This document shows positions 5,355 through 64,000 of a stretch of 64,000 bases of DNA, piece after piece. Source of the DNA: Okeania sp. SIO2B3 (GTDB lineage Bacteria > Cyanobacteriota > Cyanobacteriia > Cyanobacteriales > Microcoleaceae); NCBI RefSeq assembly GCF_010672525.1, contig NZ_JAAHGH010000003.1:62001-126000 (forward strand). Direction: 5' to 3'. The notes below the pieces were generated by a model. That model was given only the letters and a program-made list of their open reading frames with translations, was not told the DNA's origin and ran no database searches. Position 1 is the stretch's first letter. Each line of letters begins with the position of its first letter. Position numbers and translations under genes: made by a program.

Positions 5355-5581
5355 CATTCAGCCGTCAGCTATCAGCTATCAGCTATCAGCTTCATTAGCT
5401 TAAATTGTATGGGTTAAAAACTAAAAACAAGTCTTTCTTGTGCTTCAATTTATGAGTGGAAAATGTAGTATAAGTTAAACGAGTTTTTACTTCATTCATT
5501 AAAAAGCTGTTTGCGTAGCATTCCGTAGGAAAAGCTGACTGCTAATAGCTTAATGCTTACTTACCTTTTTAAGAGATAAAA
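5355..5581. repeat. Short tandem AGCTATC repeats and a palindromic SDR between R-M genes
   Basis: Holds CAGCTATCAGCTATCAGC at 5368-5390 and a GTTTGCGTAGCATTCCGTAGGAAA element at about 5509-5532. The latter is one of about ten dispersed copies (see findings). The endonuclease start follows at 5582; GAGATAAAA just upstream could serve as a weak ribosome-binding site. Confidence 0.6.
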
Positions 5582-7199: not shown

Positions 7200-9275
7200 A
7201 ACAGGATGACAATTTCCAAAAATATCTACTTACCCCTAAATAGAGTAGATATTCTGGAAAATTATCTGACAAATTTGCGACTATCTATATATGGAAGTGA
7301 AATTTTTACCTGTGATGAAAACTGGTAAAAAGTCGAAGGAAGGTAAGAGGCGATCGCTCCACTTCAGAAAATATCTACTTACTTCTAGATAGAGGAGATA
7401 TCTGGGAAAAATCTCTGACAAATTTTCCACTACCTATATATGGAAGTGAAATTTTCAAGTATCTATATATAGGAGTGAAATTTTTATCTATGAGGAAAAC
7501 TGGCAAAAAGTCGAAGGAAGACAAGAGGCGATCGCTCAACTCCAACAAATATCTACTTACCTCTAGACAGACCAGACATTTGGTCAAATTATCTAACAAA
7601 TTTTCCACTACCTATACCTGGAAGTAAAATTTTCATAGGCTCCGAAAACTGGTAAAAAGTCGAAGGGAGACAAGAGGTGGTCGCTCAACTTCAACAAATA
7701 TCTAGTTACCTCTAGGCAGACCAGACAGTTGGTCAAATTATCTAACAAATTTGCCTACCTGGAAGTGAAATTTTCATCTGCTCCGAAAACTGGTAAAAAG
7801 TCGAAGGGAGACAAGAGGTGATCGCTCAATTTCAGAAAATATCTAGTTACCTCTAGGTAGACCAGATACCTGGGAAACTCTCTGACAAATTTTCCACTAC
7901 CTATATATATAGTGAAATTTTCATCTGCTCCGAAAACTGGTAAAAAGTCGAAGGGAGACAAGAGGCGATCGCTCAATTTCAGAAAATATCTATTTACCTC
8001 TAGGCAGACCAGACATTTGGTCAAATTATCTGACAAATTTGCGATTACTTATATATGGAAGTGAAATTTTCATCGGTAGGGAGACAAGAGGCGATCGCTC
8101 AACTTCAGAAAATATCTGCTTACCTCTATAAACAGCAGATATCTTGGAAAAGTTTCTGACAAATTTGCGACCTATCTAGTATATAGAAGTGAAATTTTCA
8201 CCTGTGAGAAAAACTGGCAAAAAGTGGAGGGAAGGCAAGAGGTAGTTGCTCAACTTCAGAAAATATCTACTTCCCTGTGAAAACAGCAAATATTTGGAAA
8301 AAGTCTCTAGCAAATTTTCCACTACCTATATATAGAAGTGAAATTTTCACCTGTGAGAAAAACGGGTAAAAAGTCGATGGGAAGTAAAAGGCAATCCCTC
8401 GACTTTTGAGAAAAATCTCTGACAAATTTTCAGCTACCTATATATAGAAGTGAAATTTTTATCTAACCTCTAGGTAAAGCAGATATTTGGGAAAATTTTT
8501 TGACAAATTTTCGACTACTTATATAAGAGTGAAATTTCCATTTCTTCAGAAAAATGACAAAAAGTCGAGAGAGAAGTAAGAGGCGATCGTTCGACTTCAG
8601 AAAATATCTACTTTCCTCTAGAGAGAGCAGATATTCTGGAAAAGTCTCTGAGAAATTTTCAGCTACCTAATATATAAGAGTGAAATTTTCAGATCTGAAT
8701 AAAACTGGTAAAAGGTCGAGTAGAGGCAAGAGGCGATCGCTCGACTTCAGAAAATATCTATTTCCCTGTGGAAAGAGCAGATATCTGGGAAAGTTCTCTG
8801 GCAAATTTTCGGCTACCTATATAAGAATAAAATTTTCATATGTGAGGAAAACTGACAGAAAGTCTAAAAGACATAAGAAGCAGTTACTCAATTTCAGAAA
8901 ATATCTACTTATCTCTAGGTAAAGCAAAAATTCTGTGAAAATCTCTGAAAAATTCAGAAAATATCTACTTGCTTCTAGATAGACCAGATATTCTGGAAAA
9001 TTATCTGACAAATTTTCGGCTACCTATATATAAAAGTGAAATTTTCATCTCCTCAGAAAACTGGTAAAAAGTTAAGGGAAATTAAGAGGTGATCGCTCGA
9101 CTTCAGAAAATATCTACTTCCCTGTGGAAAGAGAAAATATCTGGAAAAAGTATCTGAGAAATTTTCGGCTACCTACTTAGTTAAAAGTTATTTATTTTGT
9201 CAACTTTCATCTCCTCAGAAAACTGGTAAAAAGTTGAGGGGAAGTTAAGAGGCGATCGCTCTACTATCGATACTA
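7200..9275. repeat. Tandem array of about 13 degenerate units, roughly 145 bp each
   Basis: Each unit runs approximately: TTCAGAAAATATCTACTT, CCTCTAGGTAGA, CAGATATCTGGAAAA, TCTGACAAATTTTC, GCTACCTATATATA, GTGAAATTTTCATC, AAAACTGGTAAAAAGTCGA, then AAGAGGCGATCGCTC. The TTCAGAAAATATCT anchor recurs near 7362, 7834, 7976, 8102, 8253, 8594, 8746, 8890 and 9100, with related forms at 7540 and 7690. Most units end in a HIP1 octamer. Some are truncated. The track ORFs at 7375, 7755, 8680 and 8817 are read-through of these units; their peptides repeat each other (YFLKLSDRLLSPFDFLPVF), as expected of a repeat, not a gene. Confidence 0.85.
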
Positions 9276-21444: not shown

Positions 21445-22316
21445 AATTTGAGTTGGTAAAAATACAAATACATCGATCAAAGAGTTATTTTTTTTGCTAC
21501 TACTATTATATTTGTTAATCTTGATGATTCATATGTAATTTCATCTTAATTTTGTATTAGTTAAAAATCTATAGCTAACTAGAAACTTTAAATCATAAAG
21601 TAAGCATTCAGCTATTAGCAGTCAGCTATTCCTTTGAAATACTAGGTAAACAGCAATTAATAATAGACATCTGGCGGTCATCAAAAATCAAATCAATTAT
21701 CGCGAAAAATCATCAATTCTTTCCCTCTACTCTGTAGGGAGGTTGCATGCAACCTCCCTACTCCCTATTTTCTGGAGAGGTCTAATGAATTATTACTTCT
21801 AAAGTGGGATAAGGAAACTTTGGCAATAACTTTTTGTTCTTTCTCAATTCCTTAATGATAGGTTTAATTACTGGTGGCTAATTATTGGATAATTATTACC
21901 ATTAGTAGATTATAACAGGTAAAAAAACAAACTTAATATAATTTTGGTGTTGCACAGTGACAAATGATTTGATATTTTTGATGAACAGTATTTTGGATTT
22001 GAGAATTGCTATAATGATCAATCTGAGTTTTTTTTACTCAAAGTATAAACTAATTTTTAGCAATATCATTATATCATGTACAACCCCATAATTTTAGAGT
22101 CAAAAAAGCATTATTCAATACCTGAAATTAATTAAAAATCATATTCTATTTTTGAGATAATTTTTAAGATAAAATATCTCAAGTGCTTATTTGACAGTAA
22201 AAATCAGCTATTTTCACTATTAAGCGATCGCTACTCATTAGCTAGAGTACTAAAAAACTATATTGCAAGTCATACTAACTTTTCCCCATAACTTTTATTC
22301 GTATTGTAAACCAATT

Positions 22317-27427: not shown

Positions 27428-28580
27428 ATGAAATCCATTAGAACCAAACTCAAATTAAATAATAAGCAGAAAACTCTGATGGCTCAACACGCGGGCTACT
27501 CTCGATGGTGCTATAACTGGGGTAAAAGGTTTGTGGAATGCTGCTTACAAGGATGGTTTCAAGCCAAACGCTTCCTGCGGAATGCTGCGCAAACGTAAGC
27601 TCAGAGATGTGTTTACCAATCACACAAAACCTCTTTATCCCTGGATGAAAAACTTGTCGTCTAAAGTTTATCAATATGCTTTTATCAACTTATCTGAAGC
27701 GTTTAAAAGGTTCTTTAAAGGATTAGGTAAATATCCAAGATTTAAGAAGAAAGGTAGGTCTGATTCATTTCCTTCGGAATGCTTCCCTACGGGATGCTAC
27801 GCAAACGCAAACACAATTGAAAACCAGTGGAAAGCCAATAGAATTAAACGGATGGAATCATAAATTACCTTTTATTGGTATGGTCAAAACTTATGAACAA
27901 GAGTGAGGCAACAGTTCAAAAAATAACTATTAGTAGGCAAGCAGGAGATTGGTATATTAGCTTTAGCTTTGAATTTCATCCTCACACCATACCCAAAAAA
28001 ACTGATGTTATAGGTGTAGATTTAGGTGTAAAAACCTTAGCCACTTTAAGTGATGGTAAGGTGTTTCCTAGCATAAAACCATATAGAAAAGCTGAGAAAA
28101 AACTGACTAAGTTGCAACGTCAAGTTAGTCGAAAACTCAAGTATTCAAAGAATTGGTACAAAGCTGTAATCAAGTTAGCGATCGCAGCATAGACGAGTAG
28201 CTAATATCCGCAAAGATGCACTTGATCAACTGACAACTTACGCAAGCCTTGAATCACGGCAGTGTTGTCATAGAAGATTTGAACGTTCGCGGAATGTTGG
28301 CTAATCATAAGCTAGCTAAAATCAGTTAGCAGATAGTGATTTTATGAGTTTAGGCGACAGCTTAAATATAAATGCGAATGGTACGGAAGTGAATAAGTAG
28401 TAGTAGATAGATTTTTTCCATCGTCAAAGACTTGCTCAAACTGTGGTCACGTTCAAGATATGCCATTAAATCTGAGAACTTATGATTGCCCTGAATGTGG
28501 CTTATCAATGGATAGAGATTTAAACGCCAGTATAAATTTAACAAATGCGGTCGGCTTGACCGTCAATGCCTGTGGATGAG
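27428..28580 (+). pseudogene. Broken TnpB (IS200/IS605 OrfB-type) gene
   Basis: RNA-guided nuclease relic of a transposon, read in several frames. From ATG 27428: KSIRTKLKLNNKQKTLM; then YPWMKNLSSKVYQYAFINLSEAF, IGVDLGVKTLATLSDG (RuvC Asp), VIEDLNVRGMLANH (RuvC Glu), a zinc finger CSNCGHVQDM...CPECG and DRDLNASINLTN. At least three frameshifts or stops. Two short palindromic inserts lie inside the coding frame at 27571-27594 (SCGMLRKR) and 27768-27809 (PSECFPTGCYANAN). No TnpA is nearby. Confidence 0.85.
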
Positions 28581-37794: not shown

Positions 37795-39149
37795 CTATGT
37801 GACATACTCCCACACGCTTGCTGGCGCTATTGTGTGGGCTTCTCGTTTCGCAGTCCTGCCACTGCATCGGACAAGCGCGTGCTTTAAGGACGGGATGCCC
37901 CACCGCCCTATTTTTTATATTTATTGCTGCATTTCCTACGGAATGCTACGCAAACAAGTCGCGGTCTATTACAATACCGCAGTGTGGGCAAGAATGAGTT
38001 CGTATGTTTAATTCTTTCGGAACTTTTTTACCGCAATTCGAGCAATCTTGGCTGGTATTTTGAGGATTCACTGCTATGGTTTTCACCTCCAGCATTTCCG
38101 GCTTTGACAGTCAAAATAGACAGGAATTGTCCCCATCCAGCATCGTTAATTGATTTACTCAAACGAGTCTTTAGTTAGTCCTTTAATATTTAAGTTTGCC
38201 TCCGGCACGCCGCTCCGCGTCTACATGGGCGATTACTTCTGCTTTTAATAACAATTCATTGGCTGTTTTGAAATGAAAGTCTTTACGTTTATCGGCAATT
38301 TCTTGGTGCGCGTTCCGCAAGCGAGCTGTCGTCGTCGCGGGGTCGCATCCGCTTTTTTATGTTGTTTGGCAACAGCTTTGACAGCTTTTAACCATCTTTT
38401 GCTACCTTTCTTTTTACGAGATAAACGTTTTTGTAAAGTCTTTAATCGCTGCTGATATTTTCGATAGTATTGAGGGATGGGGACTGATTCTCCTTCACTT
38501 GTTACTAAGAATTCCTTCAACCCCATATCGATTCCCAGAGTGTTTTTGAATGTAGGTTCAACTTTACTTGTTAAAGCTGGAACTGATTTTTCTTCTAGGG
38601 ATAAAGTTACATAATAACCGTCAGCTTTACGACTAATTGTTACTGTTTAAGAGTGAAAACTATCAGGTAACGGCCGATGTTGAATCAACTTTATCTTGCC
38701 TATTTTTGGCAAATTAATTTGATTTTCTTCAATACAGTTTTGTTTGATTTGAGGATAAGTAAGACTACGATAACGCCCAATTCCATTCAACCTTGGTTTT
38801 CCTAATTTATGTCCATTTTTGTCTGCCTTAAACCATCTATCAAAGGCAAGTTTTACCCGTTTTATGCAATCGCGGTAATACTTGAGAATGAATCAGTTTG
38901 TAGTCAGGAAACTTGTCTTTGGTATTGACCAAATCTTTTTTTTGAAAGTAATAATCTGGATTATCTCTGAGTCTTGGAATTGGCATCTACCTTGGGGCAA
39001 GCATTAACCGGACAACGGTTTTCTGACCACCATGAGAATCTTTCACCTAACCGATAGTTGTACTGCCGACGCAACAATTCCAACCACATTTCTATTGTGG
39101 CTACTTGTTCTTTGTTGGGCCTTAATTTATATTGGTAGGCAGTGCGCAT
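37795..39149 (-). pseudogene. Decayed TnpB with in-frame palindromic inserts
   Basis: N terminus MRTAYQYKLRPNKEQVATIEMWLELLRRQYNY starts at 39149. The middle piece (38245-38526) has [41 protein letters not shown], and the zinc-finger end is at about 37960-38090. Stops and frameshifts separate them. A block [15 protein letters not shown] (38300-38345) interrupts the helix between HKKA and KKLPINV and looks like an inserted palindromic element. Another insert (GCCTCCGGCACGCCGCTCCG at about 38203) is shared with the 43-kb relic. Confidence 0.85.
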
Positions 39150-39159
39150 GGTGGAAAAT

Positions 39160-39340
39160 TTCCGGGGTTATAGCAATATAATATACAAGTTTTTTAACCA
39201 GAGAGAAAGCTTCTGCTGGGATATTTACCCATTGAATGGGCATTGAACCCATTCAATTGGCCGCCGATTCATCTCACACTCCTCTTTAAAATTATGGTGT
39301 GAGGCTTCTCGACGGTTTAGCTAAAATCTAAAATCTAAAA
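39160..39340. other. Hairpin-rich leader upstream of DUF3067 gene
   Basis: CCCATTGAATGGGCATTGAA with following CCCATTCAATTGG forms stems; ATCTCACACTCC pairs loosely with GGTGTGAGG. These may be the left end of the TnpB relic. Confidence 0.4.
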
Positions 39341-46562: not shown

Positions 46563-47618
46563 CTATAGAACCCCTGAGTGGTATCTTTTTAGGAAAAGCT
46601 ATATAGTTAAATAGCGATCACCAATTATCATCAATAAGAGTTGGACAAATGCCAGCCTTCAAGCAGTTTGACAGACAAAGAATGGGTTCTTATTGAACCA
46701 TCCCATACCAAAAAAGAAGAAAACTTGTCCAACATGCAGGGAGCAAGAGAGAAATTTTAGATGGTATCTTGTATCAACTCAAGAATGGTTGTAACTGGTG
46801 TTACTTATAGTGCATATTTACCACCCTATTCAACCGTATTTTGGCTTTACTTGCAGTGGCGAGCATCAGGGGTAATTGAAAAAATTAGAGATGTATTGCA
46901 TTCTCAAGTATGTCAATAGGTAAAAAAAAGCGATCGGGGACAACTTTAATCATCATTGATTCACAGGCAGTAAAAAATACCTGTAATGCTAGTATCAAGT
47001 CAATCATGATTTTGTTTTTACAAATCTACGAACGGAATTAAGCGACATCTGGCAGTAGATAGTCTCGGTTTTCCTTCTTGCTCCGTCCTTACTCTGAGGA
47101 AACCTCAGAGCGGGCGGTGCGCTTTTTTTACTTATTGCAGCAAAGCTAATGTATCTGATGATCAGGGATTAAAAGAAATATTGTCAGATAACGTTGATTA
47201 CTTCAAGTCCAAACCTGTTAATATCCCTAAAATTACTATCCTACTTGACAATGGATATCCCATAGGAAAAAATAACACAGGAGTTAAAGAAAATTTATCC
47301 AACAATTATGACCAAGATTCGGTTTAAACTATCACCAAAACCTTCAAAGGTGAAGAAAAAACAGCAAGGAAAAACAGGGTTTGTGCCCGTCAAAGCCAGG
47401 TGGGTCATCGAAAGAACCAACTCTTGGATGGAGAGATGTCAAAGCTTGACTAAAAATTTTGTTTGCGTTTGCTTCCGCATCCCGTAGGGAAGCATTCCGC
47501 AGGAAAAGAACCCTGGAAAATGCTACCGCCAAGATTAATATCCAGTTTTATTCGACTAATGCTCAAGAGACTGGCGATCGCCTAGGTTTTTAAAAGATAC
47601 CACTCAGGGGATCTATAG
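46563..47618 (+). mobile_element. Decayed IS element with intact 28-bp terminal repeats
   Basis: Ends CTATAGAACCCCTGAGTGGT and, inverted, CTATAGATCCCCTGAGTGGT, each followed by ATCTTTT. Between them a transposase is readable in pieces: LTDKEWVLIEP, GILYQLKNGCNW, PPYSTVFWLYLQWRASGV, RHLAVDSLGFP, LLDNGYP, and a late RKNQLLDGEM region. This is the IS5-like (DUF4096) group. Multiple stops and frameshifts. Two palindromic inserts lie inside (hairpin at 47094; GTTTGCTTCCGCATCCCGTA at about 47464). Confidence 0.85.
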
Positions 47619-54735: not shown

Positions 54736-55197
54736 AATTAGCTTCATACAAAATGAACTTATAAGGCAGTATTGAAAAATAATATATGTTTGTATTTTTT
54801 ACTGAAAAATATTTTGGAGTTGCAAATATTGTCTACTTCAGCAGGGAGATAAAAAATGACTCGCTTGTTTTAATAAATGTAAAGAAATGAAATTCTTTAG
54901 TGGCAGCTTTAATCTACTTGCGTTAAATTTAGGTTATAGGGTAGGAGTAAGTATTAGGTCGATGCCTTTTACTTTCAAGTTTAAAGTGAAAAAGCATTTC
55001 CTGACGGAATGCTCCGCAAACAGATACCTAATTGCAAAAATTTTTCGGCTGATAGTTGATAGCTAGTTAAAGCTAATAAAACTTAATACTTAGAAATAGA
55101 CGAATTAATCTGAGTAGGCCAATTTCTTTGGGAAAGATATATGGGTTTGTACCCTTCAATTAAATTAATAGGGAAAAATCAAGGAAATAGAGGAATC

Positions 55198-59246: not shown

Positions 59247-59978
59247 CTAGATTACACCTCAAAATTAGTATCACAAAAGGGTAGGATTCAATAATTAATA
59301 ATTAATAATTAGGGTTTGCTTATGGAAGTCTTTTGGTAGGGGTAGGAGTTAACCCACCCGCGGGCATCTCCCAGGAGGGGAAGTCAGGATAAATGGGAAT
59401 TATAGAGGAGATAGTCGGAAAAATTATCCCTTGATTTTTCTGCCATAATCGTTCCAAAATACTAGATTTTTGATCTTTTTTCACCGAAAAGCTGACACTT
59501 TTTTAGACCAAAAAATACTATTCAGCTATTAACACTCAGCTATCAGCAATGTGAGTAATAGACATCTCTATAAAAGAGGGAACAGGTAATACCATTTCTC
59601 TGTAAAAATGCGCTTAATAATTGTTGCTCAGACCTTATTAAACTGACTATTTTCATCTTTATATTAAGTAAAAATTCATGGATAAATGGTATAACAGGGA
59701 GAAATAATTGATAATTTATGGATAATAATTGATTTTATTTGGAATTTCTACCCGATTTATAATCAATAATTACTTCTAAGAGCTGATAATAGACATCGTA
59801 AGCATTTCCTGTGGACTGCTGCGCAAACAGCATTCAGCAGCCAGTTTATCAGCTCTTGATAAACATCTACTATTTTCCGCTACAGAATTGCATGAATTGA
59901 ACTCAAACTCGTCGTTCTTGTGGTTAATTCTCTGATGAAAAATGTAATTGTTAATTATTAATTATTAATTGTTGAATC
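59247..59978. other. Non-coding stretch with a truncated MITE-A and SDR
   Basis: A MITE-A left end AGGGTTTGCTTATGGAAGTC starts at 59311 with the family interior to about 59515, then stops in CAGCTATTAACACTCAGC repeats. An SDR (TTTCCTGTGGACTGCTGCGC) is at 59804-59830. Confidence 0.65.
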
Positions 59979-62514: not shown

Positions 62515-64000
62515 AATTCTCAATATTTTCTATAGATAAATAATAGCTAAAATTGGCTGAAAATAGTTGGAATTACTACTGATGAAAATTTCCTATGATT
62601 GACAAAGTTCATAAACATTATAATTCAAATAAAATTTCTTATATAGTACTAAGTAAATAGGGTGCGGACATTTCTCTACTTCCTACTCTTTTACAAGCAA
62701 AATTTATTGTCAAACACCAAAAAATTTACTGCTTATAGATATCTATATTTATCCTATCTTAATTTTAAGAAGTTATAGATCGCCATACATTATCATAATG
62801 TAAAGATTCAGCTATTAGCACCTGGGGGATGCTACGCAAACAGCAATAACACCCTGCTTTTTAGGGCAGGGTTTAAATTCAAATAGATTTGAACGACTTT
62901 TGTAGTAAGATTTAATCCGGACTGAATTAATACAACTTTGAAAGTTTACCAAAAGTAATAACTGATAGCTGATAACGCAGTTCCTCCGATAGGAGGCTAG
63001 CTGACTGCTGTTTGCGCAGCATTCCGTAGGAAATGCTTAGATCATAATAACGCTCAAATCTAAGCATTTAATTTATTGACACTCTCATGACTAAATCACA
63101 TATTATAGAGGGAGTCCTCTTACCAGTTTTTGATAGTATTTAACAGATTTTTCAGTATAAATATTATCATACTAAAAATTTATACACTAAAATCAAATTT
63201 TGATAGGACTTAGACAAAAACACTATATGTAGCAATAAAAAACTATAGTGCCACACTATCCATAGTTTTTATAGCTGAAAAATGCCTAAGTTCTGTTTGA
63301 TTAAGTAAGGGAACATAAATAAACATTAAAACGAAGAATCTGAAAATAAAGCCAGAAGACAGTTTTCAAGCTTGTTTTCATAATTTTGAATTTCCATCAC
63401 CATTTTACGAATAATTAAACCCACCTACTTAATATTCCTATAGAAGAAAAGACATAGGCAAGAAAACTTTTATAACTATTATAGATACAGCATATTCGCT
63501 TATTTATGTGGTACAATTGATGGCTTAAACAATTAATAATTAATAATTAATAATTAATAATTACCTCTCCTTGAAAACGGATAGGATTGACTCAAAGGAA
63601 AAATTTTTTCTTTTTTCCCCTTAAAAGGGGAGGCGCATACCCACAATTTCTCGGTAAAATTTTTTCCTTGTTCCCGGCTTCCCTACTCCCTAAAACCATC
63701 AATATATGTACTTTCAGAGAGTAGGAAACTGCTGTATTTTCAATAAAATAAATATAAAATAGCGTCAAGTAAAGTATGGAATATTCAATAATTTGAAGAA
63801 CAAACTATATAAAGTTTTAAAATTATGATGACCAAAAATTGACATAATACTAGCAGAGTCTAGATAATAAGTACCTTCTAGGCCATAATTTCTAGTGTAA
63901 ATTCTGTTATGTTATTGCAAAATAACCGTGGTTTCAGGTAAACCCGTGGACTTAAAGCAAATATTTAAAACCAGACATCCAATCATTGGGGTAGTACATT
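62515..64000. other. Non-coding tail of the window
   Basis: Contains SDR pieces (GGGGATGCTACGCAAACAGC at 62825; GTTTGCGCAGCATTCCGTAG at 63009) and a hairpin ACACCCTGCTTTTTAGGGCAGGGT at 62850. It also has the ACTATAGTGCCACACTAT tract at about 63245 and a Repeat-B copy at 63530-63660. No gene is seen. Confidence 0.6.

What the first reader, a model, noticed from the sequence alone, without database searches (positions are those of the whole stretch)
27571..27809. GC-rich palindromic inserts keep the reading frame inside tnpB
Seen: within the tnpB relic, SCGMLRKR (24 nt, from CTTCCTGCGGAATGCTGCGC) sits between FKPNA and KLRDVF. PSECFPTGCYANAN (42 nt) sits between GRSDSF and TIENQW. Both have lengths divisible by three and leave the flanking TnpB sequence in frame. 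The element TTTCCTACGGAATGCTACGC with AAAC occurs elsewhere between genes (5509, 37932, 54997, 59804, 63009). Rickettsia palindromic elements are a known case of in-frame protein-invading repeats; the parallel here is inference.
Basis: partly seen in the sequence, partly recalled or inferred. Interest (0 to 1): 0.7.

Follow-up and report, generated by a model that had tools for sequence, protein, structure and literature searches.

The report
21-base mobile repeat invading TnpB genes
A tiny hairpin-forming repeat, present in hundreds of copies in this marine cyanobacterium (an Okeania relative), drops into genes as exactly 21 bases, so it adds seven amino acids without breaking the reading frame; it has done this again and again at the same spots in transposon-encoded TnpB genes and once in an intact polyketide-synthase gene.

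Summary
Both inserts in the tnpB relic are copies of a repeat (24-nt motif TTTCCTACGGAATGCTACGCAAAC) with 555 copies in this 10-Mb genome (0 in the control). Compared with empty sites the net gain is 21 nt, not 24: the motif includes 3 nt of the target (TT^C). The second insert is one copy nested in another (2 x 21 nt).

Across tnpB genes, 31 of 34 empty-site comparisons give 21 nt. Among 118 homologous matches in seven genomes the extra length is 0, 21, 42, 63 or 84 nt in 114. Intergenic copies also peak at 21 nt, so frame preservation is mainly built into the element; a 22-nt variant is common outside tnpB and nearly absent inside. Other genes are almost free of copies. One exception is an intact polyketide-synthase gene with in-frame copies in four species.

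Occupancy does not follow the tnpB tree, the element stays near-identical where flanks differ by 15-20%, and one site can hold different subtypes: repeated insertion or overwriting at hotspots. Closest known kind: 21-27-nt small dispersed repeats of cyanobacteria; the protein invasion resembles Rickettsia palindromic elements without being one. What moves it is unknown.

The parts
27428..28578 (+). tnpB relic (IS605 OrfB / TnpB), broken by several frameshifts and stops, none of them at the inserts
   Evidence: PF01385 matches window 27875-28189 (7.4e-14); three-frame translation; PF01385 hit at G000:C173:89983-90177
27571..27594 (+). element copy 1: 24-nt motif, 21 nt net; reads SCGMLRK between FKPNA and KLRDVF
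   Evidence: net 21 nt against an empty homologue from the same genus (L192, 87% identity)
27768..27812 (+). element copy 2: nested double, 42 nt net; reads FPSECFPTGCYANAN between GRSDS and TIEN
   Evidence: 21 nt net against a homologue carrying a single element (L004, 89% identity)
27785..27805 (+). inner 21-nt unit CCCTACGGGATGCTACGCAAA of copy 2, sitting at TT^C of the outer copy
   Evidence: exact cut and join seen in the sequence
37932..37955 (+). exact consensus copy, antisense in a second tnpB relic (minus strand, about 38350-39161) just after the DRD motif; in frame but carries TAG
   Evidence: (net 21 nt, 95% identical empty site)
5509..5532 (-). exact consensus copy outside called genes, in a compound repeat; net 21 nt
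63010..63033 (-). copy outside called genes, 1 mismatch (TTTCCTACGGAATGCTGCGCAAAC), preceded by TAAGCA
54998..55021 (+). subtype C copy TTCCTGACGGAATGCTCCGCAAAC (4-nt loop, usually 22 nt net), outside called genes
59805..59828 (+). diverged copy TTTCCTGTGGACTGCTGCGCAAAC preceded by GTAAGCA
47483..47506 (-). outer part of another nested copy (TTTCCTGCGGAATGCTTCCCTACG...)

Best explanation
It is a very small mobile repeat of the cyanobacterial small-dispersed-repeat kind. The unit is 21 nt (about [T/C]CCTACGGAATGCTACGCAAA) and can form two tiny hairpins. It enters precisely at TT^C, makes no target duplication, and with its target looks like the 24-nt motif TTTCC...CAAAC. Because 21 nt is seven codons and the sequence has no stop in any of the three sense frames (and in one of three antisense frames), a copy that lands in a gene adds seven residues and leaves the frame intact. 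Copies in constrained genes are purged; copies in tnpB, which is multi-copy and dispensable, persist at intergenic-like or higher density, and the same few sites are entered repeatedly. Shown: repeat, copy number, 21-nt unit, target, nesting, tnpB enrichment, empty sites. Inferred: that it is mobile now, that the hairpins matter for movement, that tolerance explains the tnpB bias, and that some other enzyme moves it.
For: 555 copies, control 0. Core of 24-25 nt bounded by unconserved or locally repeated flanks. Empty sites give net 21 nt: 31/34 in tnpB, mode 55/121 outside. Independent counts of extra length in seven genomes: 0 x81, 21 x24, 42 x5, 63 x2, 84 x2, four others. Target TT^C read directly, e.g. 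AATACGCTTTCATGAAC against AATACGCTTT[21 nt]CATCCAC. Nesting at TT^C inside another copy. Density per kb: tnpB 0.26, non-coding 0.094, other coding 0.003; 10 of 80 copies in the 1.9% of DNA that is tnpB, p=2.7e-6. Of 84 exact copies in other Okeania/Hydrocoleum/Trichodesmium-type contigs, 28 lie in or beside tnpB. Occupied and empty tnpB copies intermix on a tree; C7:6766-7235 has three copies, its sister L172 none. Hairpin pairs 2-10 and 12-20 are the two highest mutual-information pairs of 276 (chance 5.5e-4). Single-copy PKS host with in-frame copies in four species.
Against: No movement was observed and no mobilising enzyme identified; Y1 transposases and reverse transcriptases occur in element-free relatives as well. 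Hairpins are weak (-2 kcal/mol) and subtype B lacks the first one. Shared sites could partly reflect gene conversion between tnpB copies. Insert-bearing tnpB are less often intact (open frame >=350 aa 3/15 against 35/56, p=0.007). The 118-match count sees only in-frame changes by construction. Some antisense copies carry a stop.
Confidence: 0.77

Rival explanations
1. Coding selection shapes the inserts: insertions of many lengths occur and only multiples of three survive in genes.
For: 22-nt variants (subtype C, 4-nt loop) are common outside tnpB but near-absent inside (31:1 against 55:28, p=5e-4); motif length 24 in 30/30 tnpB copies against 102/118 elsewhere. dN/dS 0.06-0.20 between closely related insert-bearing tnpB.
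Against: 21 nt is also the commonest net length outside genes, so selection is not needed to explain most of the pattern. Many of the 22-nt copies belong to one compound repeat and are not independent. The dN/dS may record constraint before insertion.
Confidence: 0.3
2. The copies sit in tnpB as descendants of a few old insertions that spread when the transposon copied itself, kept uniform by gene conversion between tnpB copies; little independent insertion.
For: Identical sites in several paralogues (KVAK, FGEKP, YQYA, DS-F, LQTA). The same triple (YQYA, FKRF, DSF) occurs in own C7 and in Okeania SIO3B5 L240.
Against: Occupancy is not clustered on the tree for any site. Element identity is 93-99% where flanks are 80-87% and synonymous sites differ by 0.6-1.7, although many copies were found through exact matches, which biases this. 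The same site holds subtypes A, B and D in paralogues and A or B in orthologous PKS genes.
Confidence: 0.3
3. It is a REP-type repeat moved by a Y1/RAYT transposase or a passenger of the IS605 machinery, which also enters at a short T-rich site without duplication.
For: Reverse complement contains GTAG twice; GTAG-tagged REPs are described in cyanobacteria (PMC3733652); Y1 genes are present (15 in own genome). IS605 insertion without duplication is established knowledge.
Against: Y1 gene counts do not track element presence (G007 has 26 Y1 hits and no element). No element cluster beside a Y1 gene was looked for in detail; no paired REPIN arrangement was tested.
Confidence: 0.2
4. The segments are ancestral parts of TnpB or chance similarity.
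For: Some TnpB subfamilies carry the segment in most held copies (FGEKP site).
Against: Copies occur genome-wide outside genes; empty relatives up to 97% identical exist; shuffles and reversed pattern give 0.
Confidence: 0.02

Closest known systems
Small dispersed repeats (SDR1-SDR8) of Nostoc and relatives (Elhai et al. 2008, Genome Res 18:1484; not held here; cited in PMC4390886 and PMC3116915; details of size, structure, nesting and heptamer context from memory)
   Same: Unit of 21-27 nt, hundreds of copies, small hairpins with compensatory change, nesting in its own copies, placement in heptamer-like repeats, precise entry into a short target (SDR5 enters HIP1 between its 3rd and 4th base, PMC4390886).
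   Different: Sequence identity with any SDR could not be checked. Target here is TT^C, not HIP1. Coding sequence as a regular home (tnpB, PKS) is not mentioned in any source I could read. Hosts are Okeania, Hydrocoleum and Trichodesmium-type filaments, not Nostocales.
Rickettsia palindromic elements (Ogata et al. 2000, 2002; reviewed in PMC10969869)
   Same: Dispersed hairpin repeats found in frame inside protein genes, adding residues without breaking the frame.
   Different: RPEs are about 150 bp and add tens of residues, and about half lie in genes of ordinary metabolism; this one is 21 nt, adds 7 residues, and lies mostly in tnpB.
GTAG-tagged REPs / REPINs with RAYT transposases (PMC3733652, PMC3116915)
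   Same: About 20-40 bp palindromic repeats, present in cyanobacteria; GTAG occurs in the reverse complement.
   Different: No terminal unpaired GTAG tag beside one hairpin, no doublets shown, no RAYT link found.

Membership tests
Cyanobacterial small dispersed repeats (SDR) | unit of 21-27 nt, highly repeated and dispersed | tested here: met
   21-nt net unit, 555 copies
Cyanobacterial small dispersed repeats (SDR) | small hairpins supported by compensatory changes (SDR4-6) | tested here: met
   top two mutual-information pairs are predicted pairs; T-A to C-G at 2-10. Only one pair shows clear double change; double changes overall 16 against a shuffled mean of 6, with a shuffled maximum of 16
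Cyanobacterial small dispersed repeats (SDR) | sequence match to a published SDR family | not testable with these tools
   the 2008 paper is not in the library
Cyanobacterial small dispersed repeats (SDR) | nesting in its own copies | tested here: met
   window 27768-27812 and other loci
Rickettsia palindromic elements | in-frame insertion in protein genes | tested here: met
   tnpB and PKS
Rickettsia palindromic elements | unit of about 100-150 bp | tested here: not met
   21 nt net
GTAG REP / REPIN with RAYT | association with a RAYT (Y1) gene | tested here: inconclusive
   Y1 counts do not track element presence; neighbourhood of individual Y1 genes not examined

The most novel reading that the evidence does not exclude
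A site-specific 21-nt mobile element, probably the smallest protein-invading one, whose length is tuned to seven codons and which repeatedly enters or overwrites the same codon positions of tnpB and of a PKS gene, so that one site carries different subtypes in different lineages.
Probability: 0.35. Interest if true: 0.75.

Novelty: new variant of a known kind. Interest (0 to 1): 0.6.

Why it matters
If right, a mobile unit as small as 21 nt can enter proteins without frameshift, a limiting case for how selfish DNA adds residues to proteins. Recurrent occupation of fixed sites with precise empty alleles in close relatives makes the movement of such tiny repeats, an open question since they were described, testable: one can look for the enzyme or RNA that recognises TT^C in that context. 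It also marks these genomes' roughly 150 tnpB matches as a natural insertion library.

Tried and rejected
Orientation bias: 26 sense to 4 antisense in own tnpB but 13:15 in other genomes and 12:4 over distinct sites (p=0.08); rejected as not robust. Y1 transposase and reverse transcriptase counts as a clue to the mover: not diagnostic. Other transposases as a control: tnpB makes up almost all large multi-copy families in the sample, so no comparable control family exists. Rfam: no match. Apparent host C207:17731 is a CAP-domain-like protein with a natural chance match. First tblastn run failed on an option, one script on a file header. Literature searches found no in-frame use of such repeats in cyanobacteria, but the key 2008 paper could not be read.

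Full report
WHAT IS THERE. The window is C173:62001-126000 of a 10.0-Mb assembly. The tnpB relic at 27428-28578 reads in pieces in three frames. One open piece, 27531-27860, runs from WNAAYKDGFKPNA through both inserts to TIEN; the frameshifts lie outside the inserts.

THE ELEMENT. In 2.04 Mb of own DNA 181 copies are found at up to 4 mismatches, control 0; conservation stops abruptly after 24-25 nt. Most lie outside called genes, many between GTAAGCA and AGCTATTAGC-type repeats. Subtypes: A (TTTCCTACGGAATGCTRCGCAAAC), B (TTTCCTAGGTCATGCT...), C (TTCCTGACGGAATGCTCCGC..., 4-nt loop), D (TTCCGTTTGTCATGCT..., seen at one tnpB site). Type A folds as two hairpins, TTCC-TAC-GGAA and TGC-TAC-GCA. Over distinct copies the two strongest mutual-information pairs of 276 are exactly two predicted pairs, 2-10 and 12-20 (chance 5.5e-4).

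NET LENGTH AND TARGET. Joined flanks were aligned with empty relatives. In tnpB the net insertion is 21 nt in 31 of 34 comparisons; outside tnpB 21 nt is the mode (55 of 121), 28 are 22 nt (many of subtype C), the rest scatter by alignment noise. An independent protein-diagonal method gives 21 nt most often. The native target is TT^C, commonly TTTCA or ATTCA, with no duplication: AATACGCTTTCATGAAC becomes AATACGCTTT-TCCTACGGAATGCTGCGCAAA-CATCCAC. The window's second insert is a copy at TT^C of another copy, 21+21 nt. So 'multiple of three' belongs to the element, inside and outside genes.

CODING HOSTS. The genome has 154 PF01385 matches. In the unbiased 2.04-Mb sample, copies per kb are 0.26 in tnpB, 0.094 in non-coding DNA and 0.003 in other called genes; 10 of 80 copies lie in the 1.9% that is tnpB (p=2.7e-6). 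The gene caller is crude (65% coding), so densities are approximate. About a dozen distinct sense sites and four antisense sites were seen, in all three sense frames (FPTECYAN, SYGMLRK, FLRNATQ) and chiefly in the open antisense frame (VCVAFRRK); antisense copies in a closed frame either carry a variant without the stop (FAQHDLG, FAKHSEG) or do stop (window 37932). In seven genomes 118 matches to the N-terminal 136 residues have 0 (81), 21 (24), 42 (5), 63 (2) or 84 (2) extra nt, four others differ by 3 nt from these values; frame-breaking changes would not be seen in that count. Full-length matches with inserts are less often in a long open frame (3/15 against 35/56, p=0.007), so inserts go with relaxed or lost function. 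Yet closely related insert-bearing genes show dN/dS of 0.06-0.20, which may predate the insertion.

A NON-TRANSPOSON HOST. C44:2999 lies in frame in a gene with a PKS dehydratase domain (PF14765). Orthologues in G001, G003 and G004 are open for 2307, 2099 and 2120 aa; own copy ends at 389 aa within a 15.6-kb contig, its upstream state was not examined. All four carry the element in frame at the same TT^C in an AATTCAG heptamer-like stretch. It is subtype B in three species; in G004 it is subtype A, with a second copy one heptamer upstream. A further copy lies in a repetitive stretch of a 2506-aa ORF.

RECURRENCE. On a tree of 27 related tnpB segments, occupancy at the three main sites needs as many changes as shuffled labels. 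Pairs sharing a site have 80-87% identical flanks but 93-95% identical elements, near 99-100% in several clusters; synonymous distances are 0.6-1.7 or saturated. Part of this is ascertainment, since many loci were fetched by exact match; the unbiased pair C1:5363 and C112:27967 is exact too. The DRD site holds A, B and D in paralogues. Either the element re-enters preferred sites or resident copies are overwritten.

MECHANISM. Shown: precise 21-nt gain, TT^C, no duplication, nesting, hairpin covariation, recurrence. Inferred: mobility in trans, by a Y1-type strand transfer or an RNA intermediate; counts of Y1 and reverse-transcriptase genes do not decide.

KNOWN KINDS. It works like an SDR in size, structure, nesting and context, and like an RPE in entering proteins. 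It fails RPE membership by size; SDR membership cannot be settled because the defining paper was not available.

Noticed in passing
G000:C44:2999, G004:C20:116843-116962: In-frame element copies in a large PKS gene, with subtype switch between species and a second copy in G004.
   Followed up: partly
window 37932-37955: Exact antisense copy just after the DRD motif of a second tnpB relic, in frame but introducing a stop; the same site holds subtypes A, B and D in paralogues and in other Okeania contigs.
   Followed up: partly
G000 whole genome: 154 PF01385 (TnpB) matches, against 15 Y1 transposase matches: a strong excess of tnpB without tnpA.
   Followed up: no
e.g. window 5506-5562, 21598-21654, 59790-59840: A second repeat family, GTAAGCATTCAGCTATTAGCTGTCAGCT-like, is the commonest intergenic home of the element.
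   Followed up: no
window 7207-9179: Long tandem array of about 149-nt units, each with a conserved 40-nt part containing GCGATCGC in many copies.
   Followed up: no
G000:C195:71890-79389: ORF of about 2500 aa with a repetitive insert region (KLEVGSRKSVPQSQ repeats) holding a nested element copy; possibly TamB-like.
   Followed up: no
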